Source: Stella humosa
Lineage (GTDB): Bacteria; Pseudomonadota; Alphaproteobacteria; ATCC43930; Allostellaceae
DNA length: 64,000 bases
Reading direction: 5' to 3'
Assembly: GCF_006738645.1 (NCBI RefSeq)
Contig: NZ_AP019700.1
Span: 4,322,001-4,386,000 of the forward strand
The position numbers and the translations under genes were made by a program. The notes below the pieces were generated by a model that worked only from the letters and a program-made list of their open reading frames with translations, searched no databases and had not been told where the DNA came from. Shown in pieces: positions 49,036-63,833 of this stretch. Each line of letters begins with the position of its first letter. Position 1 is the stretch's first letter.

Positions 49036-50625
49036 GTGTCATCGAGAGTTCGCGGCGCAGCCGCCATTGCCACAGCCGCACTGCTGCTGACGGTACCGCC
49101 GGCCGACGCCCAGCGCCTGCGCGTCGGCGTGTCGGTGGAGCACAGCTCGCTCGACCCGCATTTCCATTCGACCGGCCCCAACGCCCAGATCGCCCGCCAC
49201 CTCTATGATCCGCTGGTCGGGCAGGATGCCCAGCAGCGGCTGGTGCCGGGGCTGGCGCTGTCCTGGACCATGGTCGAGCCGACGCGCTGGCTGCTGAAGC
49301 TGCGGCAGGACGTGCGCTTCCATGATGGCAAGCCGTTCGAGGCCGAGGACGCGGTGGTGTCGCTGCGCCGGGCCCTGGCCGGGGTGGAAGGCAGCCCCGG
49401 CGGCTATTCGACGTACCTCCGGGCCATCGCCAGCACGCGCGCGGTCGACGCCACGACGCTGGAGATCGTCACCGCCGGCCCGCACCCGACCCTGCCCTGG
49501 GACCTGACGGCGATCGCCATGGTGCCGCGGGCCATGCTCGCGGCCAAGGCCGACGCCTTCAATTCCGGCATGGCCGCGATCGGTACCGGCCCGTTCCGGC
49601 TGGTGTCGTGGCAAAAGGGCGAGATGCTCGAACTGGGCCGCAACAGCGCCTGGTGGGGCGATGCGGTGCCGTGGCAACGCGTGTCGGTGCGGCCGATCCC
49701 GCGCGAGGCCGCCCGGGTGGCGGCCCTGATGGCCGACGATGTCGACCTGATCGACGCAGTGCCGTCGACCGCGCTGGCCGACCTGCGCCGGCGCAGCGAC
49801 ATCGCGCTGGCCGAGGCCGTGACCAGCCGGGTGCTCTTCATCGGGCTGGACAGTGCCCGCGACCAGAGCCCCTTCGTGACCGACGCCGACGGCCGGCCGC
49901 TGACGCCAAACCCGCTGAAGGACCGGCGCGTGCGCCGGGCCATCTCGCTGGCCGTCGACCGCGACGCCCTGGTGCGCCAGATCATGGAAGGGGCGGCCGT
50001 GCCCGCGGCCCAGTTGCTGCCCACCACCTATGCCGGCACCAGCCAGCGACTGAAGCCCGATCGCTTCGACCCCGAGGCCGCCCGCCGACTGCTGGCCGAG
50101 GCCGGCCATGCCGGCGGCTTTACGATGGTGCTGCACGGCCCCAACGGTCGCTACCTCAACGACGACAAGGTGACGATCGCGCTGGCCGGCATGCTGCAGC
50201 GCATCGGCATCCGCACCCAGGTGGCGAGCCTGCCCGCCAGCGTCTTCAAGAGCCGGGCGAACAAGCGCGAGTTCAGCGCCTTCATGGATGGCTGGGCGAC
50301 CGAGACGGGGGATACCGGGCTGGCCCTGCGCGCGCTCCTGGCCACGGCCGACCCCGCCACCGGCTGGGGCGGCTACAACCGCACCGGCTATTCCAACCCG
50401 GCCTTCGATGCGGCCCTGGCCAAGGCGCTGGTCATCGGCGACGACACCGCGCGCGGCCAGGCGCTGGCGCGGACGATGGAGATCGCCATGGAGGATGGTG
50501 GCATGCTGCCGCTCTATTTCCAGCAGGCGATCTGGGCGACCCGCGCCCGCGTCCGCTATGAGGCACGCGCCGACGAATACACGCTGGCCCATTCGGCCCG
50601 CCCGGCCGAAGGCGGCGCCCGATGA
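49036..50625 (+). CDS. Oligopeptide-type (family 5) substrate-binding protein, 529 aa
   Basis: A periplasmic binding protein with a short signal peptide (MSSRVRGAAAIATAALLLTV, ending ADA) and the SBP_bac_5 pattern: SSLDPHFHSTGPNAQIARHL, DVRFHDGKPFEAEDAV, GTGPFRLVSWQKGEM, and DRRVRRAISLAVDRDALV. Its cognate Dpp permeases are not adjacent. The stop overlaps the ATG of the second ATP-grasp ligase (ATGA), so it belongs to the cassette and may bind the ligase product or a precursor peptide, possibly delivering it to a distant Dpp permease. The GTG start at 49036 is where the signal peptide begins. Confidence 0.9.
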   Translation: MSSRVRGAAAIATAALLLTVPPADAQRLRVGVSVEHSSLDPHFHSTGPNAQIARHLYDPLVGQDAQQRLVPGLALSWTMVEPTRWLLKLRQDVRFHDGKPFEAEDAVVSLRRALAGVEGSPGGYSTYLRAIASTRAVDATTLEIVTAGPHPTLPWDLTAIAMVPRAMLAAKADAFNSGMAAIGTGPFRLVSWQKGEMLELGRNSAWWGDAVPWQRVSVRPIPREAARVAALMADDVDLIDAVPSTALADLRRRSDIALAEAVTSRVLFIGLDSARDQSPFVTDADGRPLTPNPLKDRRVRRAISLAVDRDALVRQIMEGAAVPAAQLLPTTYAGTSQRLKPDRFDPEAARRLLAEAGHAGGFTMVLHGPNGRYLNDDKVTIALAGMLQRIGIRTQVASLPASVFKSRANKREFSAFMDGWATETGDTGLALRALLATADPATGWGGYNRTGYSNPAFDAALAKALVIGDDTARGQALARTMEIAMEDGGMLPLYFQQAIWATRARVRYEARADEYTLAHSARPAEGGAR

Positions 50626-52460
50626 GAGCACCGAACCTCCACCGCGCGACGGCAATGACCGGCGCCAACTGGTTCGCCGACCGTTCGGTCATGCTGATGC
50701 AACTGGCCCAGCCGGGCGACCGGCCGCCGCCGCCGATGCGGCGCTGGGCGGGCGCGGTCGATATCCTCGATCGCATCCTGCCGCCGGGATTGCCGCCCGG
50801 CCGCCTGCGCGAGCCGATCGATCGCACCGACGCGGTCGAGATCCTGGCCGCCGAGATCTATCGTTGGGGCGGCTTCGAGCCGCTGCCGATCGCCCGCTCG
50901 CGGCTCAGCCGGGATTCGCGCCATATCGCGGCGATGTGGCTGGGCCATCCGCCCCTGACGCAGCACGCGCTCGATGCGGCGCGCCGGATCGTCGCGCGCG
51001 CGGTCAACCCGGCCATCGCCGATGACACCCTGGCCGACCCCGACTGGATAGCGGAACGGCGCGCGGTGCTGCTGGCCCAGCGCCACGAGAGCGAACAGTG
51101 GCTGCCGTCGTCGCGCCGCTACATCTTCGAGGCCGCGGCGCGGCGCGGCCTGCCCTGCTTGCCGCGGGGACCGACCGGCGTCATCACCCAACTGGGCGAA
51201 GGACGGCACGCGCAATATATCGACGGGTCGGCCACGGCACGGACTTCGGTGCCGTCCATGCGGCTGGCCAACAACAAGCGGCTCGCCCACCAGGTGCTGC
51301 AACGGGCGGGCGTGCCCGTCGCGCGCCAGCGCCGCATTGCCGACCTGGCGTCGGCGCGCGCCGCCCTGGCCGCGCTCGGCCTGCCGATGGTCATCAAGCC
51401 CGAGGCCGAGCGCCGGCAGGCGGGCGTCGGCTTCGTCTTCACCGCGGACGAGCTGGAACAGGTGTTCGAGGCATCCCGCGCGGTCAGCACCGAGCTGCTG
51501 GCCGAGAGCTTCCTGCACGGGATCGAGTATCGCGTGCTAGTGATGGACGGCACCATCGTCGGCATCGTCGGCGCCGAGCCGCCCAAGGTGGAGGGCGACG
51601 GCCGGTCGACCGTCCGCCAACTGATCGCCGCCATCAACGACGACCGAGCCCGCGGGCCGCGCAGCGAGGGGCACCGGCTGTCGCCCATCCCGCTCGATCC
51701 CCTGGGCGCGCGCCAGCTCGCCATGCAGGGCCTCAGCCTGGACGACGTGCCCGCCGCGGGCCGGCTGGTCGAGGTCCATCCGCTGCCGATGATGCGCTTC
51801 GGCGCCGGCTGGAAGAGCGACGACACCGACCGCATCCACCCCGACACCGCCGCCATGGTCCTGCGCGCGGTGGCCGCACTGGGCCTCGACATCGCCGGGA
51901 TCGACCTGCGCACCCCCGACATCGCGCGCTCCTGGAAGGAGGTCGGCGCCGGCCTGTGCGAGGTGAACCCGCAGCCCAGCCTGAAGGTGCACTACAATTT
52001 CGAGGAGAAGCCGCAGCAGGGCGTCGCCGACCGGCTGCTCGACGCCCGCTTCCCACCGGGCAAGCCGTCCCGCCTGTCGCACTATGCCCTGGTCGGCGAA
52101 GGCGACCTGTGGCCGGCGGCCCAGGCGCTGGCCCGCGAGCTGAACGGCCGCTATGGCTGGCGCGTCGGCATCGCCGGGCCCGACCGGATCGAGCTCGACG
52201 GCTGGTATCCGCCCGCCGAGGCGCGGCGGCCCTTTGTCCGCTACGACATCCTGGCCGCCGACCGCGCGCTCGATGCCGCCATCCACATCCTGCGGCCGGC
52301 GGAGATCGAGCAGCACGGGCTGGGCTTCGACCGGCTCGACACCGCCTTTCTCGACGGCCAGCCCGACCCCGGTGATGCGGTGTGGGCGGCCGTCCTGGAA
52401 ACCCTGCGCAGCGCCGGCGCCCACCTGCAACGCATCCCCAGGGCACGCGCCGTGGCGTGA
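50622..52460 (+). CDS. Cyanophycin-synthetase-like ATP-grasp ligase with degenerate Mur-ligase tail (copy 2), 612 aa
   Basis: A paralogue of the 41.7-43.6 kb ligase. TGANWFADRSVMLMQLAQPG starts the N domain; LGEGRHAQYIDGSATARTSV, ANNKRLAHQVLQRAGVPVAR, VIKPEAERRQ (K259), IEYRVLVMDGTIVGIVGAE and LCEVNPQP keep the ATP-grasp site. The stretch VEVHPLPMMRF and GLDIAGIDLRTPDIARSW are nearly identical to copy 1. The C-terminal part retains GYGWRVG-like and HGLGFDRLDTAF, the latter matching GLGFDRCDVAV of CphA, but the Mur P-loop is GEGDLWPA instead of GTNGKT. The N-terminal helices differ strongly from copy 1, which may change specificity. The ATG overlaps the stop of the binding protein. Confidence 0.8.
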   Translation: MRAPNLHRATAMTGANWFADRSVMLMQLAQPGDRPPPPMRRWAGAVDILDRILPPGLPPGRLREPIDRTDAVEILAAEIYRWGGFEPLPIARSRLSRDSRHIAAMWLGHPPLTQHALDAARRIVARAVNPAIADDTLADPDWIAERRAVLLAQRHESEQWLPSSRRYIFEAAARRGLPCLPRGPTGVITQLGEGRHAQYIDGSATARTSVPSMRLANNKRLAHQVLQRAGVPVARQRRIADLASARAALAALGLPMVIKPEAERRQAGVGFVFTADELEQVFEASRAVSTELLAESFLHGIEYRVLVMDGTIVGIVGAEPPKVEGDGRSTVRQLIAAINDDRARGPRSEGHRLSPIPLDPLGARQLAMQGLSLDDVPAAGRLVEVHPLPMMRFGAGWKSDDTDRIHPDTAAMVLRAVAALGLDIAGIDLRTPDIARSWKEVGAGLCEVNPQPSLKVHYNFEEKPQQGVADRLLDARFPPGKPSRLSHYALVGEGDLWPAAQALARELNGRYGWRVGIAGPDRIELDGWYPPAEARRPFVRYDILAADRALDAAIHILRPAEIEQHGLGFDRLDTAFLDGQPDPGDAVWAAVLETLRSAGAHLQRIPRARAVA

Positions 52461-52477: not shown

Positions 52478-53404
52478 CTATGCGTCCCCTGCGAAGTATC
52501 GGCTGTTCAGGGTCTCGAACGCCTTCTGATAGACGTTGGCCTCGGTGTTGGGGATCAGGATCAGGTCGTCCTGCGGGGCTGCGACCCAGTCGCCCGTCCA
52601 GACCGCGAAGGTCTCCCCCGTCTCCGTGATGGGCCACAGGCGCGGGCCGGAGACATAGTTCATCCAGGGCATCGCGCACTTCGTGATGCGATACGAGAAG
52701 GACCGCTGCAGGTCGTCCAGGTGCAGCAGTTCCTCGTTCAGGTGCCCGTCGCCGAACAGGAAGTCGCGCACGCCCGAAACCTTGTCGGACCGCGCGCCGT
52801 CCAGCATGTGCATGCGGGTGATGTCCGGGTGCCAGTCGCCCATGCCGGCGAAGTCGCGCATGCGCGCCCAGACGTCCTCGACCGCGCCGTGGATGATGGC
52901 GGACGTCCACACCTTGTTGGGCGCCCAGGCCTTCCAGCGCGGTACGCCGGCCGGCTTCGTCGGCCGGTCGCGCTCGATCTGCGCCCGGAGCGAGCGCCAG
53001 CCGGCGGCGAAGACGCCGTTGGAGACGATGTCGACATACTTGCCCTCGTCGCCGGGCGCCTCGTCGAACGTCGCCTCCCATTCGCAGAAGGTCGTGTCGT
53101 CGCGCGTCACGGGGTAGAGCCGCACCGTCGACAGGTAGTTCTTCACCGGGAAGCAGGGCTTCTCGAAATTATACGCCAGCGTGAAGCGCGCATCGTCCAG
53201 CATCAGCAGGCGCTCGCGCACATGCGTGCCGTCCGCCAGGTGGAAGGAGCGCACGCAGCCGACCACGTCGGCGTCGAGCCCGTCCTCGATCTCCGAGCGC
53301 GCGACGCCGGCGTGGAAGCGCGGCAGCCCGTTGAAATCCCGCATGTAGGGCCAGACGACCTCGATGGGCGCCTGGATGATCGCGCTGGCATAGGCCCTGG
53401 CCAT
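52478..53404 (-). CDS. Tandem double SRPBCC (START-like) domain protein, 308 aa
   Basis: Two SRPBCC domains in one chain. Domain 1 (residues 1-148) begins MARAYASAIIQAPIEVVWPY, RDFNGLPRFHAGV; domain 2 (about 165-305) begins KVWTSAIIHGAVEDVWARMR, DFAGMGDWHPDITR. Each has the typical ABC-helix entry, a DGxHVRERLLxLDD or DGHLNEELLHLDD strand pair, and the C-terminal long helix (VFAAGWRSLRAQIE and ANVYQKAFETLNS). The fold binds hydrophobic ligands and includes polyketide cyclases and hydroxynitrile-type lyases. It is the last gene of the Liv transporter/Tm-1-like operon. AAGGAG lies 8 bp before the ATG. Confidence 0.85.
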   Translation of the reverse strand: MARAYASAIIQAPIEVVWPYMRDFNGLPRFHAGVARSEIEDGLDADVVGCVRSFHLADGTHVRERLLMLDDARFTLAYNFEKPCFPVKNYLSTVRLYPVTRDDTTFCEWEATFDEAPGDEGKYVDIVSNGVFAAGWRSLRAQIERDRPTKPAGVPRWKAWAPNKVWTSAIIHGAVEDVWARMRDFAGMGDWHPDITRMHMLDGARSDKVSGVRDFLFGDGHLNEELLHLDDLQRSFSYRITKCAMPWMNYVSGPRLWPITETGETFAVWTGDWVAAPQDDLILIPNTEANVYQKAFETLNSRYFAGDA

Positions 53405-53429
53405 GGCGTCGCTCCTTCCTGGTATAGGA

Positions 53430-53459
53430 CGGTTCAGAACGTGGCGGTTCAGAACGTGA
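53430..53459. repeat. 15-bp tandem duplication covering a stop codon
   Basis: Plus strand CGGTTCAGAACGTGG is followed directly by CGGTTCAGAACGTGA. On the minus strand the first-read copy ends the TIM-barrel gene (ITF then TGA), and the second copy repeats the same TTC TGA downstream in the gap before the SRPBCC gene. Confidence 0.9.
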
Positions 53460-54279
53460 TCGACTTGAAGGCCGTGGTCTGCGCCGTCAGGGCCGCCTCC
53501 GTCGGCAGGCGCTCCATCGAGGAGGCGCCGTAGAAGCCGTGGCAGTGCCGGGTGGCGCGCAGCACGTAGGCCGCGTCCTCCGGCGTGGCGATCGGCCCGC
53601 CGTGGCACAGCACGATGATGTCCGGGCGCACGCTGCGCGCGGCCTCGGCCCATTCGTCGATCCGCTGGGGGCAATCCTCCAGCTTGAGCGCGGTTGCGGC
53701 ACCGATCGACCCGCCGGTCGTCAGCCCCATGTGCGGGACCAGGATGTCGGCGCCGGCCTTGGCCATCTCGATCGCCTCGTCGGCGCTGAAGACGTAGGGG
53801 GTCGTCAGCATGTCCTTGGCATGGGCCAAGCGGATCATGTCCACCTCCGGCCCGAAGCCCATCCCCGTCTCCTCCAGGTTGGCGCGGAAGGTGCCGTCGA
53901 TCAGGCCGACGGTCGGGAAGTTCTGCACCCCGGCGAAGCCCAGCGCCTTCAGCTCGTCCAGGAAATGGTCCATCACGACGAAGGGGTCGGTGCCGTTGAC
54001 GCCGGCGATGACCGGGGTGCGCTTGACCACGGGCAGCACCTCGCGCGCCATCTCCTTCACGATGTCGTTGGCGTTGCCATAGGCCAGCATGCCGGCCAGC
54101 GAGCCGCGGCCGGCCATGCGATAGCGGCCGGAATTGTAGATGACGATGAGGTCGATGCCGCCGGCCTCCTCGCACTTGGCGGACAGCCCGGTGCCGGCGC
54201 CGCCGCCGACGATCGGCTGGCGCAGCGCCACCATGGACTGGAACCGGTCGAGAAGTTCCGCGCGCGAGAATCGAGGCAT
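53449..54279 (-). CDS. PEP-hydrolase-family TIM-barrel protein (Tm-1 C-terminal-domain type), 276 aa
   Basis: A TIM-barrel protein of the family I know as PEP_hydrolase (PF09370-type). The pattern is [20 protein letters not shown] (residues 22-41), [27 protein letters not shown], the signature [10 protein letters not shown] (120-129), and [11 protein letters not shown] near the C terminus. It is homologous to the C-terminal half of the plant Tm-1 protein, whose N-terminal half is the UPF0261 family encoded next to it here. Enzymatic activity is not established; names such as phosphoenolpyruvate hydrolase or dioxygenase are database guesses. It is followed by the SRPBCC gene and preceded by the Tm-1-like gene. 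Confidence 0.87.
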
Positions 54280-54314
54280 GGGTCCTGTCCTGTCTCCTTG
54301 GCCGGGCAAGCGCC

Positions 54315-55511
54315 TCAGCCGATGATCGATCGGAATTGGGCCACGGCCTCGGCCGTGAACTTCGGGTCGTTGATGTTGGCCGCGACCTCGATCAGCTTGC
54401 GGTTGCGCGCCTTCTTCCAGCCGCTGCGGATGGCCTCGAACAGGGCCTGGTCGGAGGCGGGGTCATGGAAGGGCATGCCCGGCGCGTCGATCGCCGACAC
54501 GCCGCCCAGCGGCAGCAGGAAGCGCACCGGCCCCGTCATGCGGTTCAGGCGCTCGACGATCCAGGCGCCGACGGCCCGGTTCTCCTCGGCCGTGGTCCGC
54601 ATCAGCGTGACCTGGGCGTTGTGGACATAGAGATTGCGATCGGCGAACCGCGGCGGGACCGTGTCGCGCGCGCCGAAATTCACCATGTCGACCGCACCCA
54701 CCGAACCGACATAGGGGATGGCACCGCGGATGATCGCGCCGAAGCGGTCCTCGGTGCAGGGGAAGACGCCGCCCACCAGGAAGTCCGGCACCTCGGTCGT
54801 CGTCAGGTCGAGGACGCCGGCCAGCAGCCCCGATTCCGCCAGCTTCTCCATCGATTGGCCGCCGGTGCCCGTCGCATGGAAGACATAGGGCTCGAAGTCG
54901 GCCGCGATCGCCGCGCGCACCTGGGTGACGCAAGCGGTGGTGACGCCGAACATCGTCAGCCCGACGCCCGGCTTGTCCTGCCGCGACGCGCGCACCCGGT
55001 TCATCGCCATGCCCGCCACGGCGTGGGCGGCATTGCCGATGATCTGGCGCGAGATCGCGTTGAGCCCGGCCACGTCGACGACCGAGTACATCATCTGGAT
55101 GTCGCTGGGGCCCACATAGGCGGCGACGTTGCCCGACGCCACGGTCGAGACCATCAGCTTGGGCACGCCGATCGGCAGCGCGCGCATGGCCTGGGTCACG
55201 ATCGCCGTGTTGCCCGAGCCGCCCAGTCCCAGCACCGCGCCGACGTCCCGCCGCTTGGCCAGGAAAGCGGTGAGCGCGTCGGCCATCGCGCCGACCGCCA
55301 GGCCGCGGTCGTCATGGCCCAGCACGGCCTTCACCCCGCCCGGATGGTGGCGGGCGACGGCGCGGGCCGGTACATCGGCCGCGGATGGCCCGCCGCGGGT
55401 GCCGACATCGACCAGCACCGCCCGGGCGCCGGCCTTCTCGACCATCGCCTTGGCATAGACGAGCTCGGCTTCCTTGGTGTCGCAGGTGCCGATGACATAG
55501 ACCTTCGCCAT
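54315..55511 (-). CDS. Tm-1-like ATP-binding domain protein (UPF0261), 398 aa
   Basis: The start [20 protein letters not shown], then [15 protein letters not shown], the glycine-rich [34 protein letters not shown] and [18 protein letters not shown] are the hallmarks of UPF0261/Tm-1 N-terminal domains, which bind ATP in the plant virus-resistance protein Tm-1. Length (about 400) is normal. In bacteria it is usually adjacent to the TIM-barrel family, as here (35 bp). The reaction is not known; an ATP-dependent step on a small molecule imported by the neighbouring Liv-type transporter is a reasonable inference. GGAGG lies 4 bp before the ATG. Confidence 0.9.
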
Positions 55512-55540
55512 GGTTCCTCCGCTTTCAGCGATGGCCAGGT

Positions 55541-56259
<719 letters not shown>

Positions 56260-56260
<1 letters not shown>

Positions 56261-57009
56261 CAGTGGCCCCCGCCCAGATAGATCGCCTGCACCACCGGGT
56301 CGGTCGCGATCCGGTCCGGCGTCGCCTCGACCACCACCTGCCCGTCCTTCATGACGGTGACGATGTCCGCGGTCGGCAGGGCAATATCCATATCGTGCTC
56401 GATCAGGATGAGCGTCAGGTCGCGCGGCAGTTCGCGCAGCAGCTCCAGCAGCTTCGGGCGGTCGCCTGGAGACAGGCCCGCCGCCGGCTCATCCAGCATC
56501 AGCACGCGCGGCTTGCCGGCCAGCGCCATGCCGACCTCCAACTGGCGGCGCTGCCCGTGCGACAGCTCGCGCACGCCGCGATGGATGCAGTCGCCCAGGC
56601 GCATGCGCTGGGCGATGGCTTCGGCCTCTGCCCGGTCGGGGTCGCCCCGGCGCGGGACCAGCATCGAGAAGCGGCCGGCCTTCACCCCGCGGACGGCCAG
56701 GAACAGGTTGTCCAACACCGTCAGCCCGTCGAACAGCAGCGACGTCTGGTAGGTGCGGCCGATGCCGAGGCGGGCGCGCCGGTGCGGCGTCAGGCGCGTG
56801 ATGTCCTGGCCGAACAGCGCGATCCGGCCCTCGGTCGGCGGGAAGTCGCCGCAGATGGTGTTGAACAGCGTCGTCTTGCCGGCGCCGTTGGGCCCCAGGA
56901 TGGCGCGCCGCTCGCCCGGCATCACGTCCAGGCTGACGCCCTGCACGGCCTGGAGCGCGCCGAAGCGGCGCGACACGTTTTCGATCCGGATGGCCGGGGT
57001 CAAGGTCAT
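56260..57009 (-). CDS. livG: Branched-chain amino acid-type ABC transporter ATP-binding protein LivG, 249 aa
   Basis: A LivG-type ATPase: Walker A GPNGAGKTTLFNTICGDF, the LivG-typical IGRTYQTSLLFDGLTVLDNL, signature LSHGQRRQLEVGMALAG (a His in place of Gly, common in this branch), Walker B VLMLDEPAAGLSPGD, and LILIEHDMDIA. The start at 57009 places MTLTPAIRIENVSRRFGALQ as the N terminus. It partners LivF and the permeases LivH and LivM of this operon. It lies 95 bp after the binding-protein gene. Confidence 0.95.
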
Positions 57010-57103
57010 GAGGCCTGGATGCTGACGTCGCGATGGAAGGCGAAGGCGCGGGGGGCCGGCACGAGCGTCGCCCGTGCCGGCCCCTACTGCCCGCTTGACT
57101 GCG

Positions 57104-58384
57104 TCAGCCGGCGATGCAGCCGGCATTGTCGCGGGACGGCGCCCCAAGGGCGAGGAAGCGGTCCTCGGGCACGCCCAGCGTCTGGTTGACCTGCGACGCG
57201 CGGGCGAAGGCCACCGTCTGCGCCCGGCCGTCGCGCTCCTCGATGCGGTTCAGGAAGATGTCGGAGATCGCCTGCCGGTTCTTGTCGAGCGAGACCTCCG
57301 CCCCCATCGGGTTCTTGAACTTCGCCGCCGACATCGCCTTCTGGAAAGCGGCCTGGTTGCCGGACAGGTCGCCGCGGACGGCCTCCAGGCCGGCCAGGAT
57401 GCCCTGCAGGTTCGTCACGTAGTTGACGCCGTGGATCGAGGGCGACTGGAAGCCGCCTTCCTTCAGCCAGCGGGCGCGATAGCGGGCGACGAAGTCGTTC
57501 CAGTTCGGGTCGTCGTTGATGTCGGCGATCGGTCCGCCGGAGACCATGCCCATCATGACCGAGCGGTGCGGCCCGCGGGCCGAGAGCATCGTGGCGTCGG
57601 CCATGATCGAGCCGCCGATGAGCGGCAGCTTGCCGCCGGCCTGGGCATACTGGGTCATGAAGGCCAGCCCGTCGGTGCCGCCATGGACGACCACCAGGGC
57701 GCCGACGCTGGAGCGGTTGATCTGGGCGATCTGGGCCGAAAAATCGGTCGTGCCGAGCGGCGCCCAGTACTGCGTCGACTTGCCGCCCGCACGGCAGAAT
57801 TCGAGGTTGAACCCGAACACCTGGGCATAGGGGAAGGCATAGTCGCCGGCGACGATGGCAACCTCGGCGATGTTCATGGTCTTGCGGACATGGTTGCCCA
57901 GCCCCGCCATCCACTGCGTCCCGTCGGTGGAGAAGCGGAAGAAGTTGGGCGACGGGTTGCGCAGCGTCGTGTCCGACGCACCCGACGAGCCGTTGACGAT
58001 GCTCTTGCCTGTCAGCGTGCGCGAATAGTCGCGCAGCGCAATGCCCTCGGCACCGGACAGCGGGCCCAGGATGATGTCGACATTGTCCTGCTCGATCAGC
58101 TTGCGGGCCCGGGCCAGCGCCACGTCGGCCTGGGCGTTCGAGCTTTCGCGGATGAACTCGATCTTGCGGCCGCCGGCCGTGTAGTTCAGCCGCTCGAGCT
58201 CCATCTGGACGCAGCGATAGGCGTCCTGCCCGCCGGTCGCGAACGGCCCTTCGAGCGTGGTCAGCCCGCCGATGCGGATCGGCGCATTCTGGGCGATGGC
58301 GGGGGCCTTGATGCCGGCGGCCCCCGCGAGCGCGATGCCGGCACCGCCGACGAGGGCCTGACGGCGGGTGATGCGAATGGTCAT
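57104..58384 (-). CDS. ABC transporter substrate-binding protein, Liv/amide-type (Peripla_BP_6), 426 aa
   Basis: A periplasmic binding protein of the leucine/amide family. The N terminus RITRRQALVGGAGIALAGAA has a twin-arginine motif and a hydrophobic stretch ending APAIAQ, so Tat export is possible. Mature features include PIRIGGLTTLEGPFATGGQD, NVDIILGPLSGAEGIALRDY and VNGSSGASDTTLRNPSPNFF. Proteins with this last pattern often bind amides or aromatic compounds rather than branched-chain amino acids. It is encoded between livM and livG. SD GAGGAGG is 7 bp from the ATG. Confidence 0.92.
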   Translation of the reverse strand: MTIRITRRQALVGGAGIALAGAAGIKAPAIAQNAPIRIGGLTTLEGPFATGGQDAYRCVQMELERLNYTAGGRKIEFIRESSNAQADVALARARKLIEQDNVDIILGPLSGAEGIALRDYSRTLTGKSIVNGSSGASDTTLRNPSPNFFRFSTDGTQWMAGLGNHVRKTMNIAEVAIVAGDYAFPYAQVFGFNLEFCRAGGKSTQYWAPLGTTDFSAQIAQINRSSVGALVVVHGGTDGLAFMTQYAQAGGKLPLIGGSIMADATMLSARGPHRSVMMGMVSGGPIADINDDPNWNDFVARYRARWLKEGGFQSPSIHGVNYVTNLQGILAGLEAVRGDLSGNQAAFQKAMSAAKFKNPMGAEVSLDKNRQAISDIFLNRIEERDGRAQTVAFARASQVNQTLGVPEDRFLALGAPSRDNAGCIAG

Positions 58385-58420
58385 GGCATTCCTCCTCTCA
58401 TTGGGCTCTTTGCATGGTCG

Positions 58421-59440
58421 TCACCGCCTCCGGGAGCCGGTCGGGACGGTGTTGTGGAGCAGGCCGGCAATGCGCCGCACGAGGCCGGAGAGACCGTCCG
58501 GCGAGACCAGGACGATCGCCAGGAAGACGACGCCGATCAGCGTATTGAAGCGGTTGCGGTCGTAGATCGTGGCCGCGAAGGTGTCGAAGACCGCAAAGAC
58601 CAGGGCACCGACGAAGGCGCCGATGGGGTGCCACAGGCCGCCGACCACGCTGATGATGAGGATGTTGACGGTGGCCCCCAGGCCGATCGAGCCGGGCGAG
58701 ATGCCGATGTTGTAGAAGGTGGCAAGCACGCCGCCGCAGCCGGCCACGAACCCCGCCACGGCGAAGCTGGCGATGCGGTGCAAGGCCACGTCGTATCCCA
58801 GCGCCGCCACCCGCCGCGGGTTGTCGCGGATGCCCTGGAGCACCAGCCCGAAGGGCGAGCGCACGAGGTACAGCACGAAGGCATAGAGCAGCGCCGCCGT
58901 CCCCAGCGCCGAGTAGTAGAAGACGTAGGTGTTGCGGAACGGCAGCCCGAACATCTCGGGCCCGACGACGTTGCGGATGCCCTCGTAGCCGTTGAACCAG
59001 GTGATATTGGTCTCGATGAATCGGAACACGCCCATGGCCAGCGCCAGCGTGATCATCAGCAGGTAGATGTCGCGGGTGCGCACCGCGATCGCGCCCACGA
59101 GCGCGCCAGACACCGTGGCGGCGGCGAGCCCCAGCGCGATCGCGGCGGGATAGCCGAAGCCGCCGACGATCGTCGGCACCGCCCCCTGGACGAAGATGGC
59201 GACCGTGTAGCCGGCGATGCCCGCCACCGTCATCTGCGCCAGCGAGACGAAGCCGCCATAGGTGGCCAGGAACGTCAGCGACATGGCGACGATGCCGAAG
59301 ACCAGCGCGCGGCCCAGGATGTTGGCCGTCCAGAACTGCGCCTGGTTCACGGGCAGGACGGCCAGCAGCAGCGCCGGCGCCAGCACCAGAAGTGCAAGGG
59401 CCGCGACCGACCCGATGATGGCAGGCGCCGGGCGGCTCAC
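58421..59440 (-). CDS. livM: Branched-chain amino acid-type ABC permease LivM, 339 aa
   Basis: An inner-membrane permease with about nine spans. LATYGGFVSLAQMTVAGIAGY is the LivM/LivH entry (read in two parts), AVRTRDIYLLMITLALAMGV the LivM-typical loop, GIRDNPRRVAALGYDV the coupling region, and SVVGGLWHPIGAFVGALVF the late conserved span. The GTG start at 59440 overlaps the livH stop (GTGA), which gives a normal N terminus MSRPAPAIIGSVAALALLVL. It works with LivH as the transporter channel. Confidence 0.94.
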   Translation of the reverse strand: MSRPAPAIIGSVAALALLVLAPALLLAVLPVNQAQFWTANILGRALVFGIVAMSLTFLATYGGFVSLAQMTVAGIAGYTVAIFVQGAVPTIVGGFGYPAAIALGLAAATVSGALVGAIAVRTRDIYLLMITLALAMGVFRFIETNITWFNGYEGIRNVVGPEMFGLPFRNTYVFYYSALGTAALLYAFVLYLVRSPFGLVLQGIRDNPRRVAALGYDVALHRIASFAVAGFVAGCGGVLATFYNIGISPGSIGLGATVNILIISVVGGLWHPIGAFVGALVFAVFDTFAATIYDRNRFNTLIGVVFLAIVLVSPDGLSGLVRRIAGLLHNTVPTGSRRR

Positions 59441-60318
59441 GGCAGGGCCCTGCCCATCAGCCCCTGCGGGCGCAGCGCCAGGACCACCACCATGATCACG
59501 AAGGTGAGGACGACCGAGTATGTCGGGAACAGCGCCTGGCCCACCTGCTCGGCCAGGCCGATCAGGATGGCGCCGACCGCGGTGCCCACGATCGACCCCA
59601 TGCCGCCGACGATGACGACGACCAGCGAGATCAGCAGAAAGCGCCCATCCATGCCCTGGGCCAGCGGCTGCGCGGTGGAGCCGACGACGCCCGCCAGCCC
59701 GGCCAGCCCGGCACCCAGCGCGAAGACGGCCAGCGCCACCACCGGCACCCGGATGCCGCAGGCCGCCAGCATCTGACGATCGTCGACGCCGGCGCGGATC
59801 ATCAGGCCAAGCCGGGTGCGGTTGAGGAGCAGCCACAGCCCGATGCCGACGGCCAGCGCGATGCCGATCTGGACCAGCCGGAAGGTCGGGTAGCGGCCGA
59901 CGCCGGGAACCCAGCTGGAGCCGAAGATCGCATCTGGCGCGAAGAACTGTCGCGGGTTGCCGCCGAAATGCGCCAGGAGTTGGTCGGCCACGATGATCGA
60001 CAGGCCGATCGTCACCAGCGCCTGGCGCAGCTCCTGCCCCTGCATCCAGCCCAGGAAGACCTGCTGCATGACGAGGCCGGCCACGGCGGCGAAGACGACG
60101 CCGGCCAGCAGGCCGGCATACCAGGCGTACCAGAGGTCACGGTCGTACAGCGGCTCGAAGACGGCGTATCCGACATAGCCGGCGACCAGATAAAGCGCCC
60201 CATGCGCCATGTTCACGGTCCGCATGAGGCCGAAGATCAAGGAGAAGCCGGAGGCGACGATGAAATAGAGCGCCGCCAACGTCAGCCCGTTCAGCACGAC
60301 CGTAAGCGCGAGCTCCAT
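59437..60318 (-). CDS. livH: Branched-chain amino acid-type ABC permease LivH, 293 aa
   Basis: A LivH-type permease: NGLTLAALYFIVASGFSLIF, GLMRTVNMAHGALYLVAGYV, VTIGLSIIVADQLL, MIRAGVDDRQMLAACGIRV in the coupling loop, and VVIVGGMGSIVGTAVGAILI at the end are all diagnostic. It is the first gene of the leftward operon livH, livM, binding protein, livG, livF, Tm-1-like, TIM-barrel, SRPBCC. The ATG at 60318 has AGGGATC upstream. It is divergent from the truncated TIM-barrel gene with 151 bp between, where control sites would be expected. Confidence 0.94.
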   Translation of the reverse strand: MELALTVVLNGLTLAALYFIVASGFSLIFGLMRTVNMAHGALYLVAGYVGYAVFEPLYDRDLWYAWYAGLLAGVVFAAVAGLVMQQVFLGWMQGQELRQALVTIGLSIIVADQLLAHFGGNPRQFFAPDAIFGSSWVPGVGRYPTFRLVQIGIALAVGIGLWLLLNRTRLGLMIRAGVDDRQMLAACGIRVPVVALAVFALGAGLAGLAGVVGSTAQPLAQGMDGRFLLISLVVVIVGGMGSIVGTAVGAILIGLAEQVGQALFPTYSVVLTFVIMVVVLALRPQGLMGRALP

Positions 60319-60469
60319 GATCCCTGGCGTTTCCCCTGCATGGAACCTTGCGGCTCCATTCCCATCCATCCGCCATCTGTCGCAGCGGTGTGTTCGATGG
60401 GCGGGATTAGGTATCGATCGGCCCCGCCTGTCCAGTAGCCGCCGGGCGGGTTATGGGTAAGAATGGGTA

Positions 60470-61057
60470 ATGACCGACCTGACCTTGACCCTGTGCACCC
60501 GCTTGCCGGCACCGGCGTCAGCAGCGGGCGACCGGCCGCTTTTCGTGCCGGCGCTGGATCGGTTCCCCCCACGGCTGCGCGCGTTGATGGGGCTTCTGCC
60601 CGTCTGCGACATCAACGGCGGTCTGCTGGCGGCCCTGGCCGGGCAGCGCGCCCCGCATCCCGAACCCGTCGTGGCCGGCCTGTTCGCGGCCGATCCCTTT
60701 CTCGACGCGCGCGAGCTTGCGGCCGCGCTGCGCCGCGCCGGCATCCTGGCCGTCGCCAACTACCCGACGCTGCAGTTGCTGGACGGCACCACGGCCGAGG
60801 GGCTGGCCGCCGTCGGCTACCATGCCCAGTCGGAGTTCGCGCGCCTGCAGGCACTGGCCGAAGACGGCTTCGAGGCCCTGGCCTACGTCACCTCCGTGCA
60901 GGCCGCCGAGGCGGCCATCGCCTGCGGCCTGGCCAGCCTCGTCATCCATCCCGAGCAAGGCGGCGGCCCTGCCCGCGCGGTCGCCGGCCGCATCGCGGCC
61001 ACCGCCGGACGGGCGGGTGCGCGCATCCTGCACCACACGCCCATCGCCAGCGACTGA
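60470..61057 (+). CDS. Shortened TIM-barrel PEP-hydrolase-family paralogue, 195 aa
   Basis: A shorter relative of the TIM-barrel proteins at 53.4 and 61-62.8 kb. The shared core is AADPFLDARELAAALRRAGI, the signature NYPTLQLLDG (residues 97-106) and AYVTSVQAAEAAIACGLASL, which align with [17 protein letters not shown] and [16 protein letters not shown]. The N-terminal [11 protein letters not shown] and C-terminal HGGPI blocks are missing, so about one-third of the barrel is absent and catalysis is doubtful; it may be a binding protein or decaying copy. The ATG at 60470 lies in a doubled ATGGGTAA (60453 and 60463). It is divergent from livH and converges on the regulator gene (16 bp). Confidence 0.72.
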   Translation: MTDLTLTLCTRLPAPASAAGDRPLFVPALDRFPPRLRALMGLLPVCDINGGLLAALAGQRAPHPEPVVAGLFAADPFLDARELAAALRRAGILAVANYPTLQLLDGTTAEGLAAVGYHAQSEFARLQALAEDGFEALAYVTSVQAAEAAIACGLASLVIHPEQGGGPARAVAGRIAATAGRAGARILHHTPIASD

Positions 61058-61080
61058 CCCCCGGCCGGGGCCGTCAGCCG
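61053..61080. terminator. GC-rich hairpin between convergent genes
   Basis: CTGAC...GTCAG arms enclose the palindrome CCCCGGCCGGGG with a small bulge. It spans the two stop codons of the convergent TIM-barrel genes. No T-run follows, so termination is uncertain. Confidence 0.35.
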
Positions 61081-62783
61081 ACCAGGCCGTGGCGCTTCAT
61101 CCTGTTGTAGAGCGTCTTGCGCGACAGGCCGAGCGCCTGGGCGGTCTCGTTGCGGCGGAAGCGGTGGCGGGCCAGCGCCTCCATGATCCAGGCCCGCTCG
61201 TCGGCCGGCCCATCCGTGCCGGGCGGCGTGCCGGCGGGGGCGATCAGCGCATCGACGATCGCCGCGTCGATGATGCCCTCGGGTGCCAGCGCGGTGGCGC
61301 GCGCCAGGACGCCGGCCAGTTCGCGCACGTTGCCGGGCCAGCCATGGCGAATGAACTCGCGCATGCCGTCGGCCGAGATGCGGGGGGCGGCCTGGTCGCG
61401 GCGCCGCTTCTGCGAGGCGAGGATCGCCCGCGCCAGCAGCGGCACATCCTCCAGCCGGCTGCGCAGGGCCGGCACCTCCACCACATGGGCCGCCAGCCGG
61501 CCGGCGAAGCCCCCCGCTCGCGCATCGGCGCGCGCGGTCGTCAGGATCAGGCGGGCATGCTGCGGGCGCTGCGGCTGCGGCAGGAAGCGGTCGAAGATGC
61601 CCCGCTCGATCCAGTCGAGCAGGCGGGCGATGGTGTCCGGGGCCAGCCGCTCGATGTTCTCCAGCACCAGGTGGGCGTCCGGGGTCTGCATCAGCCCCGG
61701 CCCGTCCCGGCCGAACAGCTTGGCGTCGATGTCGGCGTCGCCCGCATCCAGCACGATGAACGGCCCGACGCTGCGGCTCGCCACATGGATGGCGCGGGCG
61801 ACCGTCGTCTTGCCCGTCCCGGCCTCGCCCGTGATGCAGACGGCAAGCTGCGTGCGGGCCAGCTTGGCCACCTGGTCGACCAGGGCCGCCATCGCATCCG
61901 ACTGGCCGATCAGCCCGGCAATGCCGCCGATCCGCGATCGTTCGCGGCTGGCATCGTCGGCTTCGGTGCGCAGGATGCTGGCCGCCTTGAAGGCGGACGT
62001 CGCCTGCATCACCGACATTTCCAGCGGCAACCGGTCCAGCGTCGAGCCGCCGATATAGCCGTCGGCCAGCGACGCATCGCAGACGGCGACCGCGTCCTTG
62101 GGCTGGACGATCGGGCCGCCCTCGACGAAGCACAGGCAGCCGGGATCGGCCCGCTTCGCCAGCGCCACCATGCGGCGCGCGTGGTCGGTCGCCGCCGCCA
62201 GGTTCATGGCGCCGCCGATGCCCATGGTGCCGCCGGCGTTCCAGCCGAAATTGATGCAGAGCATGTCGACGCCGGCATCCAGCAGGCGCTCCACCTCGGG
62301 CTTGCTGCGGGCATAGCCGATGGTGGCGAGCCCGCGCTCGCCCGCCCGCGTCAGCAGCGCCACCTCGCGCGCGAGGCCAAGCCCGGCATCCTCCAGCGCG
62401 GCGCGCACCCAGCCGTCGAGATGGATCGAAGTGGGGAAGTTGGCGATGCCGCTATAGCCGGCCTCGGCGATCCGATCGACCAGGGCGTCGATGTCGAGCG
62501 TCGGGTCCATGACGCACGCGCCGAACAAGACCGGCACGGAGACCCGGCCCAGGATCTCGTGCCGGGCGAAGTCGTCGGTGAAGCGGTTGGCCTCGCGGAT
62601 CGGCAGAAGCGCGGCGTTCGAGGCCGCCCCCATCACCCGGAGCCGCCCGGCGTTCAGCACCAGCAGGAAGTCCGCCCCCCCCTGCACCGCGGCCCGGGCC
62701 GTCATGCCGAGCCCGATCGCCGCCCCGACCAGGATCTCGCCCGGCCGCGCCGGCTTCAGCGGCAGTGGCCGCTGCCCCGCCAC
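61074..62783 (-). CDS. Regulator: TIM-barrel sensor + degenerate AAA+ + Fis-type HTH, 569 aa
   Basis: Residues 1-270 are a PEP-hydrolase-family TIM barrel (ARPGEILVGAAIGLGMTARA, LNAGRLRVMGAASNAAL, signature NFPTSIHLDG at 115-124, VEGGPIVQPKDA). Residues about 288-510 are an AAA+ domain like that of sigma-54 activators: Walker A GEAGTGKTTVA (319-329) and GWPGNVREL are present, but the GAFTGA loop after KLFGRDG is missing and Walker B reads HLVLENIE instead of LFLDE. Residues 530-569 are a Fis-type helix-turn-helix (NETAQALGLSRKTLYNRMKR). It likely binds DNA and senses the pathway ligand but should not activate sigma-54 RNA polymerase in the usual way. The start is a GTG. Confidence 0.85.
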   Translation of the reverse strand: MAGQRPLPLKPARPGEILVGAAIGLGMTARAAVQGGADFLLVLNAGRLRVMGAASNAALLPIREANRFTDDFARHEILGRVSVPVLFGACVMDPTLDIDALVDRIAEAGYSGIANFPTSIHLDGWVRAALEDAGLGLAREVALLTRAGERGLATIGYARSKPEVERLLDAGVDMLCINFGWNAGGTMGIGGAMNLAAATDHARRMVALAKRADPGCLCFVEGGPIVQPKDAVAVCDASLADGYIGGSTLDRLPLEMSVMQATSAFKAASILRTEADDASRERSRIGGIAGLIGQSDAMAALVDQVAKLARTQLAVCITGEAGTGKTTVARAIHVASRSVGPFIVLDAGDADIDAKLFGRDGPGLMQTPDAHLVLENIERLAPDTIARLLDWIERGIFDRFLPQPQRPQHARLILTTARADARAGGFAGRLAAHVVEVPALRSRLEDVPLLARAILASQKRRRDQAAPRISADGMREFIRHGWPGNVRELAGVLARATALAPEGIIDAAIVDALIAPAGTPPGTDGPADERAWIMEALARHRFRRNETAQALGLSRKTLYNRMKRHGLVG

Positions 62784-62798: not shown

Positions 62799-62829
62799 CT
62801 GCCTACATCCGTCCGGGTCTGCCTACATC
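62799..62829. repeat. 11-bp direct repeat (20-bp period) spanning a stop codon
   Basis: On the minus strand GATGTAGGCAG occurs twice, 20 bp apart. The first copy contains the TAG stop of the deacylase gene and the second repeats ATGTAG in the gap before the regulator gene. The rest of the 20-bp units has diverged. Confidence 0.7.
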
Positions 62830-63833
62830 GCCAGGTCGGCGCCGAGGTGGAACAGGCAGTCGCCGCGTTCGCTGCGACCGGGCACGCGCTTGCACAGCAC
62901 CAGGCCAGCAGCCGCGAAGCGGGCCATCGTCGGCTCGCGCCACGGCGTGTCCTGGAAGTGGATGAGGCCGGCCGGGTCACCCGCCTGGACCTCCTGCCCC
63001 AGTTCCGCCAGCGGCTCGAACAGGCCGGCATCGGGCGCATAGACGTAGTGGGCGCCGGCCTTCACCTCGAGCAGGCGGGTCGGCGGGTCGGCCGGCGGCG
63101 GGGCGGTGCCCGTGAGCGAGCCGATATGGTGGAGCACGCGGCGCACCCCCTCCTCGGCCACCTTCAGGCAGGCGGGCGTCACCTGACCGCCGCCGCCCAG
63201 TTCCGAGCTCAGATGCATGACGCCCTGGCGGGCGGCGGCCGCCGTCAGCGTCCGGTCCTCGGTGCCGGTCGCACTGCCGACATAGGCGCAGGGCGCGCCG
63301 AACACCCGCAGCAGCTCGATCGTGCGGCGGTTGCGCTCCGCGTCCGGGCTGAGGCGGGCCAGCCCGCTCGGCACGTACATGAGCGAGCTGCCGCCGGAAT
63401 GCAGGTCGACCACATAGTCGCACTGCGGCAGCATGACGTTCTCGATCCAGTAGGCGATCTGCTGCGTCACCGTGCCGTCGGCATCCCCCGGGAACATCCG
63501 GTTGAGGTTGCCGTCGTCGATCGGCGAGGTGCGGCTGCCGGCGAACGCGGCCGGAAAGTTCGCCGCCGTCAGGAAGACGATGCGGCCCTTCACCTGGTCC
63601 GGCTGGATCGCGCGCAGCAGCTTCATCAGGGCGACCTGGCCCTCATACTCGTCGCCATGGTTGCCCGCCATCAGCAGCACCCGCGGCCCCTCGCCGTTCT
63701 TCACGCAGGCGATCGGGATGGGCAGCCAGCCATAGGCGGAGCGATGCACCGAATGGGGCAGGCGCAGGAAGCCGGTGTGCTTGCCGTCGCGCTCGAAATC
63801 GACTTCGGAGGAAAGGCGGCTGGGGCGGGCCAT
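62823..63833 (-). CDS. Succinylglutamate desuccinylase/aspartoacylase family deacylase, 336 aa
   Basis: A zinc carboxypeptidase-like deacylase (M14 fold). Metal ligands H59 and E62 lie in LMAGNHGDEYEGQVALMK, and the third histidine in YVVDLHSGGSSLMYVP; the catalytic glutamate is probably in HLSSELGGGGQVTP. The N-terminal SSEVDFERDGKHTGFLRLPH and the RTSPIDDGNLNRMFPG segment match the group that includes N-acetyl-diaminobutyrate deacetylase of ectoine breakdown, but no other ectoine genes are seen. It removes an acyl group from an N-acyl amino acid. It precedes the regulator gene and follows an oligopeptide ABC ATPase, so the acyl compound may be imported by that transporter. Confidence 0.88.
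   Translation of the reverse strand: MARPSRLSSEVDFERDGKHTGFLRLPHSVHRSAYGWLPIPIACVKNGEGPRVLLMAGNHGDEYEGQVALMKLLRAIQPDQVKGRIVFLTAANFPAAFAGSRTSPIDDGNLNRMFPGDADGTVTQQIAYWIENVMLPQCDYVVDLHSGGSSLMYVPSGLARLSPDAERNRRTIELLRVFGAPCAYVGSATGTEDRTLTAAAARQGVMHLSSELGGGGQVTPACLKVAEEGVRRVLHHIGSLTGTAPPPADPPTRLLEVKAGAHYVYAPDAGLFEPLAELGQEVQAGDPAGLIHFQDTPWREPTMARFAAAGLVLCKRVPGRSERGDCLFHLGADLAM

What the first reader, a model, noticed from the sequence alone, without database searches (positions are those of the whole stretch)
52478..62783. Tm-1-like system with its own Liv-type importer and a regulator built from the same TIM barrel
One operon has livHM, binding protein, livGF, UPF0261 (Tm-1 N half), TIM-barrel (Tm-1 C half) and a double SRPBCC protein. 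Divergent to it are a truncated TIM barrel and a regulator whose sensor is the same TIM barrel. All three barrels carry N-(F/Y)-P-T-x4-D-G. Reuse of an enzyme fold as the sensor suggests both bind the same unknown small molecule, imported by the Liv transporter. UPF0261 and this TIM barrel have no established bacterial function that I know.
Basis: partly seen in the sequence, partly recalled or inferred. Interest (0 to 1): 0.8.

Follow-up and report, generated by a model that had tools for sequence, protein, structure and literature searches.

The report
Importer operon with enzyme-derived regulator
A bacterial uptake-and-breakdown operon appears to be controlled by a switch protein made from a copy of one of its own enzymes that lost key active-site residues, nearly always paired with a second, shorter copy; a likely DNA binding site is recognisable across many bacteria, so the unknown nutrient can now be hunted directly.

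Summary
The genes are there, with one strand error: the regulator (REG, 61074-62783) reads in the same direction as the operon; only the short barrel (TRUNC) is divergent. The Liv-UPF0261-barrel-SRPBCC operon is conserved (SRPBCC in 24 of 24 Liv-type loci of 58 classified), but Liv is only one option: the same module sits beside sugar-type importers elsewhere. (2) A tandem repeat, TTACCCANNNTTACCCA, lies at the window's promoter (60454-60470) and recurs at importer, UPF0261 and TRUNC promoters: 78 of 96 REG loci against 0 of 52 others. (3) REG's barrel lost both invariant enzyme histidines (0 of 96) but keeps a motif expected to grip phosphate. (4) REG is built like a sigma-54 activator, but only 6 of 96 keep GAFTGA; all 6 have sigma-54-like promoters, against 3 of 77 others. 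(5) UPF0261 is no longer without a lead: 9MPY binds acetovanillone and is probably the published kinase MarK. Best model: UPF0261 phosphorylates an imported compound, the barrel processes it, REG senses the phosphorylated intermediate. The ligand is unknown; nothing was tested at the bench.

The parts
52478..53404 (-). double SRPBCC (Polyketide_cyc2) protein, last gene of the operon; ATG at 53404 after AGGAAGGAG
   Evidence: Pfam PF10604, 127 bits, two stretches; sequence
53449..54309 (-). PF09370 'PEP hydrolase-like' TIM barrel, presumed enzyme (likely start ATG at 54279)
   Evidence: 437 bits; 2p10 E 8.7e-127; model pLDDT 78.8
54315..55544 (-). UPF0261 (Tm-1 N-half) protein, presumed small-molecule kinase (likely start ATG at 55511)
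   Evidence: PF06792 + PF23189; Tm-1 structures Z 46, 9MPY Z 34
55541..56260 (-). livF-type ATPase
   Evidence: PF00005; best NCBIfam UrtE/LivF, below equivalog cut-offs
56260..57012 (-). livG-type ATPase
   Evidence: PF00005, BCA_ABC_TP_C
57104..58384 (-). Liv-type binding protein
   Evidence: PF13458, 178 bits
58421..59434 (-). livM-type permease
   Evidence: PF02653
59437..60369 (-). livH-type permease (likely start ATG at 60318)
   Evidence: PF02653; ribosome-binding-like site before ATG at 60318 (sequence printed)
60454..60470 (-). tandem 10-bp repeat TTACCCATTCTTACCCA, proposed REG operator; shares one base with the TRUNC start codon, about 136 bp before livH ATG
   Evidence: no mismatch; the only site in the genome with fewer than 2 mismatches; recurs in relatives
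60470..61057 (+). TRUNC: short degenerate PF09370 paralogue, divergent from the operon, convergent with REG
   Evidence: 54 bits, profile 54-176; found in 93 of 96 REG loci
61074..62783 (-). REG: PF09370 barrel sensor + degenerate sigma-54-type AAA + Fis-type HTH
   Evidence: 245, 55 and 43 bits; alignment; 96-locus survey

Best explanation
This is an uptake-and-catabolism operon under a dedicated regulator recruited from its own enzyme family. The Liv-type importer brings in a small compound. The UPF0261 protein phosphorylates it or an early product, using ATP. The PF09370 barrel, a phosphate-binding TIM barrel, acts on the phosphorylated product, and SRPBCC handles a hydrophobic or keto intermediate. 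REG senses the phosphorylated intermediate with a barrel that keeps the phosphate grip but has lost the enzyme's two invariant histidines, and it binds TTACCCA tandem repeats at the promoters of the importer, the enzyme pair and TRUNC. TRUNC, a shorter paralogue found only with REG, works with REG as a co-sensor or antagonist. REG is built like a sigma-54 activator, but the window's version lacks the sigma-54 contact loop and works without it. Shown by sequence: gene content, REG-TRUNC linkage, the repeat and its placement, residue losses, GAFTGA absence together with a different promoter. Inferred: DNA binding by REG, kinase chemistry here, phosphate sensing, TRUNC's role, direction of regulation, the substrate.
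For: Operator: TTACCCA-N3-TTACCCA (up to 1 mismatch) gives 115 hits in 78 of 96 REG loci and 0 in 52 non-REG loci (976 kb); each other spacer from 0 to 15 gives 0-4 hits in REG loci and at most 1 in the others. Exact repeats in 387 class genomes: 10 genomes, of which 7 are among the 11 with REG, those sites lying within the REG locus, and 3 are among the 376 others (Fisher 1.6e-10); the backward-read control gave 5 genomes, all without REG. A site with up to 2 mismatches lies upstream of livH in 44 of 49 and of UPF0261-first operons in 26 of 36 REG loci. In the window's genome it is the only site with fewer than 2 mismatches. Sensor: H193 and H236 in 129 of 130 enzymes (1 gap) and 0 of 96 REGs; R64, N130, P132, E155, GG237-238, S263 and P269 kept in 96 of 96 and R267, E271 in 95 of 96. 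REG sensors form one side of a branch, support 100. Barrel model: after 2p10 (Z 34.8) come TrpA, IGPS and 4ml9, titled a barrel with the conserved phosphate-binding site (Z about 19). Kinase: 9MPY, a UPF0261 protein with acetovanillone; PMC13101465 calls MarK the single-component kinase that starts acetovanillone catabolism in N. aromaticivorans; a UPF0261 gene close to 9MPY sits with biotin-carboxylase and HAD genes in a Sphingobium plasmid, as a kinase replacement would. TRUNC: 93 of 96 against 0 of 50. sigma-54: GAFTGA in 6 of 96, with -24/-12-like sites at 6 of 6 first genes against 3 of 77 others.
Against: No binding, enzyme or expression data. Saro_1862 = MarK is inferred from organism, ligand and titles; the MarK paper is not held. 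The window's UPF0261 is about a third identical to 9MPY, and its operon has no carboxylase. The phosphate grip is inferred from fold neighbours and motif; the barrel model is moderate (pLDDT 78.8; residues 1-9, 64-74, 134-136 and 199-202 below 50), and Foldseek also ranks methylisocitrate lyases high. K45 is only weakly informative: 52 of 96 REGs have arginine there. TRUNC's profile was trained on 11 sequences of this set. REG loci are related, so the counts are not independent. One non-REG locus has a repeat with 2 mismatches (L131). The repeat's link to REG is correlative; another regulator could bind it. 10 of 36 UPF-first and 5 of 49 livH promoters lack a site, four and three of them in the GAFTGA group. 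Importers of different classes under the same REG type argue against one shared substrate.
Confidence: 0.5

Rival explanations
1. One reading: the enzyme barrel and the sensor barrel both bind the imported molecule itself, unmodified.
For: Importer and enzyme genes share the repeat with TRUNC; the fold is shared and many pocket-type residues are kept.
Against: The same REG/TRUNC/UPF0261/barrel module goes with Liv-type and sugar-type importers, so imported molecules probably differ; the kept residues include those of a presumed phosphate site and UPF0261 is probably a kinase.
Confidence: 0.22
2. The REG barrel does not bind a small molecule; it is a docking surface for the enzyme barrel, UPF0261 or TRUNC, so pathway proteins themselves signal to REG.
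For: TRUNC, a further paralogue, is nearly always with REG; both invariant histidines are gone. The solved relative 2p10 has six chains in its entry, but its oligomer was not examined.
Against: Strict conservation of R64, N130, E155, GG237-238, S263, R267 and E271 (95-96 of 96 REGs) suggests that a ligand is still held.
Confidence: 0.18
3. REG is an ordinary sigma-54-dependent activator, as its database name says.
For: Pfam Sigma54_activat 54.6 bits; annotated as such in some records; six relatives are canonical, with GAFTGA and -24/-12-like sites.
Against: The window's REG has no GAFTGA and a degenerate Walker B; its promoter region has no -24/-12 match; two canonical relatives score 223 and 227 bits for the same domain.
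Confidence: 0.06
4. The tandem TTACCCA repeat belongs to another regulator (for example a GntR- or AraC-type protein near some loci), not to REG.
For: GntR and AraC genes occur near some loci; direct repeats are not the usual site of Fis-type HTH domains (recalled).
Against: The repeat tracks REG presence across 387 genomes and 148 loci, while the AraC and two GntR gene clusters were seen in 9, 9 and 5 of the 61 loci clustered.
Confidence: 0.1

Closest known systems
Plant Tm-1-like proteins (UPF0261 + TBST fusion), Yang et al. 2016, PMC5028733 (parts 1 and 2 of 5 and passages read)
   Same: Same two domains, as two adjacent genes here; that paper reports UPF0261 in 491 of 504 bacterial genomes with the TBST domain.
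   Different: Separate proteins, with importer, SRPBCC, REG and TRUNC; its main text has no occurrence of sigma, AAA or HTH.
MarK / Saro_1862 (9MPY) of Novosphingobium and the acv/hpe acetovanillone pathways
   Same: UPF0261 protein that binds a small aromatic ketone, probably its kinase; a pathway that starts with a phosphorylation step.
   Different: [quoted passage not shown] the window has the PF09370 barrel and SRPBCC instead; about 31-33% identity.
pNGR234a symbiotic-plasmid cluster and M. japonicum pMLa cluster (source of 2p10)
   Same: TRUNC, UPF0261, barrel and REG, with the tandem repeat between TRUNC and UPF0261 (1 mismatch in NGR234, 2 in M. japonicum).
   Different: Cupin and Gfo/Idh/MocA genes instead of SRPBCC; a sugar-type ABC importer beside the NGR234 cluster.
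NtrC-family bacterial enhancer-binding proteins
   Same: Sensor-AAA-Fis HTH order; six relatives are canonical.
   Different: Barrel sensor from an enzyme family; 90 of 96 lack GAFTGA and 56 of 95 full-length REGs lack a Walker A pattern match; most targets carry direct repeats instead of -24/-12 sites.
Liv (branched-chain amino-acid type) ABC importers
   Same: All five parts.
   Different: Below NCBIfam cut-offs for LivG/LivF and urea transporters; substrate unknown.

Membership tests
UPF0261 / Tm-1-like family | both UPF0261 domains | tested here: met
   PF06792 207 bits and PF23189 294 bits, cut-off 27
UPF0261 / Tm-1-like family | ATP binding or kinase activity | not testable with these tools
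   inferred from 9MPY and MarK only
PF09370 PEP hydrolase-like barrels | profile match and 2p10 fold | tested here: met
   437 bits; Z 34.8, 253 residues, 2.1 A
acv/hpe/MarK acetovanillone pathway | kinase with multi-component carboxylase and phosphatase genes | tested here: not met
   none among the operon genes
sigma-54-dependent activators | AAA Sigma54_activat and Fis HTH domains | tested here: met
   54.6 and 43 bits over cut-offs
sigma-54-dependent activators | GAFTGA contact loop | tested here: not met
   absent in the window; present in 6 of 96 REGs
sigma-54-dependent activators | -24/-12 promoter at the target | tested here: not met
   window not among the two hits in 39 regions (L169, L173); 6 of 6 GAFTGA loci but 3 of 77 others, the window not among them, have a site within 2 mismatches
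Liv-type importers | two permeases, two ATPases, binding protein in one operon | tested here: met
Urt urea importers | NCBIfam equivalog cut-offs | tested here: not met
   UrtE 211 of 285.8, UrtD 221 of 304.1, UrtC 104 of 296.2 bits

The most novel reading that the evidence does not exclude
REG and TRUNC act together as a two-protein sensor of one phosphorylated intermediate, TRUNC docking on REG's enzyme-derived barrel as a cap, swap partner or competitor. In most of the family a sigma-54 AAA engine has been decommissioned and the protein turned into a plain DNA-binding switch on 10-bp direct repeats, with promoters changed to match.
Probability: 0.2. Interest if true: 0.75.

Novelty: new variant of a known kind. 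Interest (0 to 1): 0.62.

Why it matters
I found no function for the PF09370 barrel in the held papers that I searched, and for UPF0261 a kinase lead dates only from 2025, although the pair is widespread in bacteria and fused in land plants as the Tm-1 virus-resistance protein. A regulator that copies the enzyme's fold, with a likely operator, gives a direct assay: a reporter on the repeat plus REG and TRUNC should report the pathway's own signal molecule. The family also holds sigma-54-type and sigma-54-less versions of one regulator, with matching promoters, which makes the change of control open to experiment.

Tried and rejected
Ordinary sigma-54 control: rejected for the window (no GAFTGA, no -24/-12 match). 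My first view that no REG has GAFTGA (16 aligned) was wrong for the family: 6 of 96 keep it. A split pocket in which TRUNC supplies residues that REG lacks: weakened and dropped, because REG itself keeps N130, P132 and E155 (96 of 96) and D108 (82 of 96). Inverted-repeat operators: facing TTACCCA arms gave 0 hits in REG loci at every spacer 0-15 in one order, and in the other order 1 hit each at spacers 7 and 10. The reversed-letter control for the repeat gave 15 hits in 14 REG loci and 0 in others; it overlaps the real repeat (ACCCATT), so I do not use it. A sigma-70-type promoter in 60250-60600: none found by consensus. A single conserved downstream pathway: not found; a flotillin-like gene lies in 22 of 24 Liv-type G loci but not in the window, and Mo-hydroxylase, Gfo/Idh/MocA, cupin, PfkB or FAD genes occur only in subsets. 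Papers: searches for UPF0261, Tm-1-like, TIM-barrel signal transduction, phosphoenolpyruvate hydrolase and related terms listed none that, from title, abstract start or the passages I opened, gives a function for the bacterial barrel; passages were opened in PMC8508112, PMC6867892, PMC2364660 and PMC12733950. Searches looked for the acetovanillone/MarK link; passages were opened in PMC13101465, PMC12167813, PMC9618137, PMC13406360 and PMC11837543. No search was made for the operator motif, so I make no claim that it is unpublished.

Rows dropped: loci L123 and L125 had neither barrel nor REG by profile and were left out of the 145 classified (they are among the 52 non-REG loci). Three REG loci without TRUNC: L146 is cut at the contig edge, L187 is an 8.9-kb contig, L207 is 12.6 kb with no hit. 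13 of 96 REG loci had no usable first-gene promoter. For the tree, 203 rows were reduced to 65. 60 loci (L066-L125) were fetched from the hits, not all hits, and some genomes gave more than one. The 80 named REG loci are the best 80 of 250 confirmed.
Full report
Observation. The operon livH-livM-binding protein-livG-livF-UPF0261-PF09370 barrel-double SRPBCC runs on the minus strand from 60369 to 52478 with short gaps or overlaps. REG (61074-62783) is on the same strand; TRUNC (60470-61057, plus strand) is divergent from the operon and convergent with REG. The three barrels are the only PF09370 matches in the 5.83-Mb single-contig genome, and three other genomes of the genus have none, so the locus looks accessory.

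Conservation. PF09370 matches occur in 48 of 387 class genomes and 31 of 397 phylum genomes (the samples overlap). I fetched 60 loci from these hits and those. In the 58 that could be classified, UPF0261 lies near the barrel in 54. A Liv set like the window's (livH at least 40%, livM at least 38% identical) is present in 24, all 24 with a binding protein and SRPBCC; SRPBCC also occurs in 7 without Liv. Among the 80 named REG loci, 37 have such Liv genes and 33 of these SRPBCC; L150, L159 and L165 end before that part of the operon, and L137 shows none. A flotillin-like gene is present in 22 of the 24 Liv loci; one member was identified by Pfam, and it lies between the barrel and SRPBCC there and in a Variovorax record. 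The window lacks it. So the Liv-UPF0261-barrel-SRPBCC operon is real and conserved, but the enzyme pair also occurs with other transporters: carbohydrate-type ABC importers on several plasmids, or none listed nearby.

REG and TRUNC. A scan of named genomes with the REG sensor alignment gave 80 loci, the best of 250. With the fetched genomes, plasmids and the window, 96 loci carry REG. TRUNC, found by a profile built from 11 members, is in 93 of 96, within 6.1 kb of REG; the other three are on a contig edge or short contigs. It is in 0 of 50 loci with the barrel but no REG. In 72 of 96 it is adjacent and convergent. TRUNC aligns to about positions 54-181 of the 267-position profile; in 11 aligned members D108 is kept in 9 and P109, N130, P132 and E155 in 11, while the C-terminal GGS region is mostly missing. 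In a tree of 65 non-redundant barrels the 25 REG sensors are one side of a branch with support 100 (quick method, which warned of long branches meeting): one recruitment is the simplest reading.

What the sensor kept and lost. Against 130 enzyme barrels, REG sensors lack both invariant histidines: H193 (129 of 130 enzymes, one gap; REG N 90, D 5, V 1) and H236 (129 of 130; REG E 70, G 25, A 1). K45 (127 of 130) is mostly R, Q or E in REG. R64, N130, P132, E155, GG237-238, S263 and P269 are kept in 96 of 96. The predicted enzyme fold matches 2p10 (Z 34.8), then TrpA, IGPS and 4ml9, a barrel whose entry title names the conserved phosphate-binding site (Z about 19, 3.3-3.5 A, 212-233 residues); Foldseek also ranks archaeal triosephosphate isomerase, methylisocitrate lyase and PdxS high. 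I infer that the GGP...GGS motif holds a phosphate group in enzyme and sensor. A shared fold alone does not prove this. The 2p10 protein is itself the barrel of a REG-TRUNC locus, Mesorhizobium japonicum pMLa.

The operator. Comparing 39 TRUNC-livH regions gave TTACCCAA (21 of 39) and ATGGGTAA (19 of 39) as top words and then a tandem repeat with a 10-bp step. TTACCCA-N3-TTACCCA with at most one mismatch gives 115 hits in 78 of 96 REG loci and none in 52 loci without REG (976 kb); each other spacer from 0 to 15 gives 0-4 hits in REG loci, and facing arms give 0 or 1. With two mismatches, 151 hits include one in a non-REG locus (L131). The consensus of 105 distinct sites is TTACCCAATTTTACCCAA. 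In the window the site has no mismatch, shares one base with the TRUNC start codon, and is the only genome site with fewer than two mismatches; three sites with two mismatches are no more than the control count. In 387 class genomes exact repeats occur in 7 of 11 REG genomes, each within the REG locus, and in 3 of 376 others; the backward-read control occurs in 5, all without REG. The repeat (up to two mismatches) precedes livH in 44 of 49 REG loci and UPF0261 where it is first in 26 of 36. On pNGR234a one site precedes the sugar-binding protein gene and one lies between TRUNC and UPF0261. In Bradyrhizobium L205 sites precede a sugar importer, TRUNC, the UPF0261-barrel operon and a Liv-type binding protein. 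Importers of different classes are thus tied to the enzyme pair by one repeat, as expected if REG senses a common intermediate. REG binding is inferred.

sigma-54. The window's REG lacks GAFTGA and a normal Walker B, and its AAA domain scores 55 bits against 223 and 227 in two canonical relatives. Only 6 of 96 REGs keep GAFTGA (L167, L168, L172-L175). All six have a -24/-12-like site (at most 2 mismatches to TGGCAC-N5-TTGCA) shortly before the first operon gene, against 3 of 77 others, which are three close Stappia loci; 72 of 3000 random segments reach this. In five of these six loci weak TTACCCA repeats (1-3 mismatches) are still visible near the promoter; L175 shows none. The simplest reading is a sigma-54-dependent state and a sigma-54-independent state within one regulator family; the order of change was not tested.

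Chemistry. The UPF0261 model matches Tm-1 (Z 46) and 9MPY, Saro_1862 of Novosphingobium aromaticivorans with bound acetovanillone (Z 34.4, rmsd 7.2). In passages of PMC13101465 I read that acetovanillone catabolism in N. aromaticivorans starts with MarK, a single-component kinase, citing Hall et al. 2025 (J Biol Chem 301:110606), which is not held. That MarK is Saro_1862 is my inference. In support, a close relative of 9MPY (578 bits) sits in a Sphingobium plasmid next to biotin-carboxylase and HAD genes, the layout of the acetovanillone pathway in which a kinase, a carboxylase and a phosphatase work together. The phmmer alignment shows that DTK, GGS, the D-x2-G-x-N stretch and the RT motif are shared by the window protein and 9MPY. 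I therefore read UPF0261 as a small-molecule kinase and the PF09370 barrel as the enzyme acting on its product. The window operon lacks the carboxylase, so it is not that pathway.

Verdict. The operon is a conserved catabolic system of known parts. What stands out is the regulator: an enzyme-derived barrel sensor, a nearly obligate short-barrel partner, a clear candidate operator and a split within the family between sigma-54-type and sigma-54-less forms. Confidence is high for gene content, REG-TRUNC linkage and the repeat, moderate for REG as its reader, and low for substrate and chemistry.

Noticed in passing
L112:10470-13379 and 22 of 24 Liv-type G loci: A flotillin (SPFH + Flot) gene accompanies most Liv-type relatives, between barrel and SRPBCC where looked at, but not the window; some loci continue with CO-dehydrogenase-type Mo-hydroxylase, CoxE and AAA genes.
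   Followed up: partly
62823-63833: AstE/AspA-type deacylase (nearest NCBIfam DoeB, below cut-off) directly upstream of REG on the same strand; among the loci scanned only L149 showed a relative.
   Followed up: partly
50622-52460: A 612-aa protein with an ATP-grasp (RimK-like) domain, convergent with the SRPBCC gene, next to a family-5 binding protein gene at 49036-50625.
   Followed up: no
L218:3552-10321 (Sphingobium yanoikuyae plasmid): Gene set of thioesterase, beta-keto acid cleavage protein, UPF0261, biotin-carboxylase subunits and HAD hydrolase, likely a hydroxyacetophenone-type pathway with a UPF0261 kinase on a mobilizable plasmid.
   Followed up: partly
L126:5494-14837 (Terrarubrum plasmid): Two UPF0261-barrel pairs on both sides of one REG, with Gfo/Idh/MocA and cupin genes.
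   Followed up: no
L134, L135, L136 (Stappia): A TGGCAC-type half of a -24/-12 site with a damaged -12 part lies before livH in GAFTGA-less loci, perhaps a relic.
   Followed up: no
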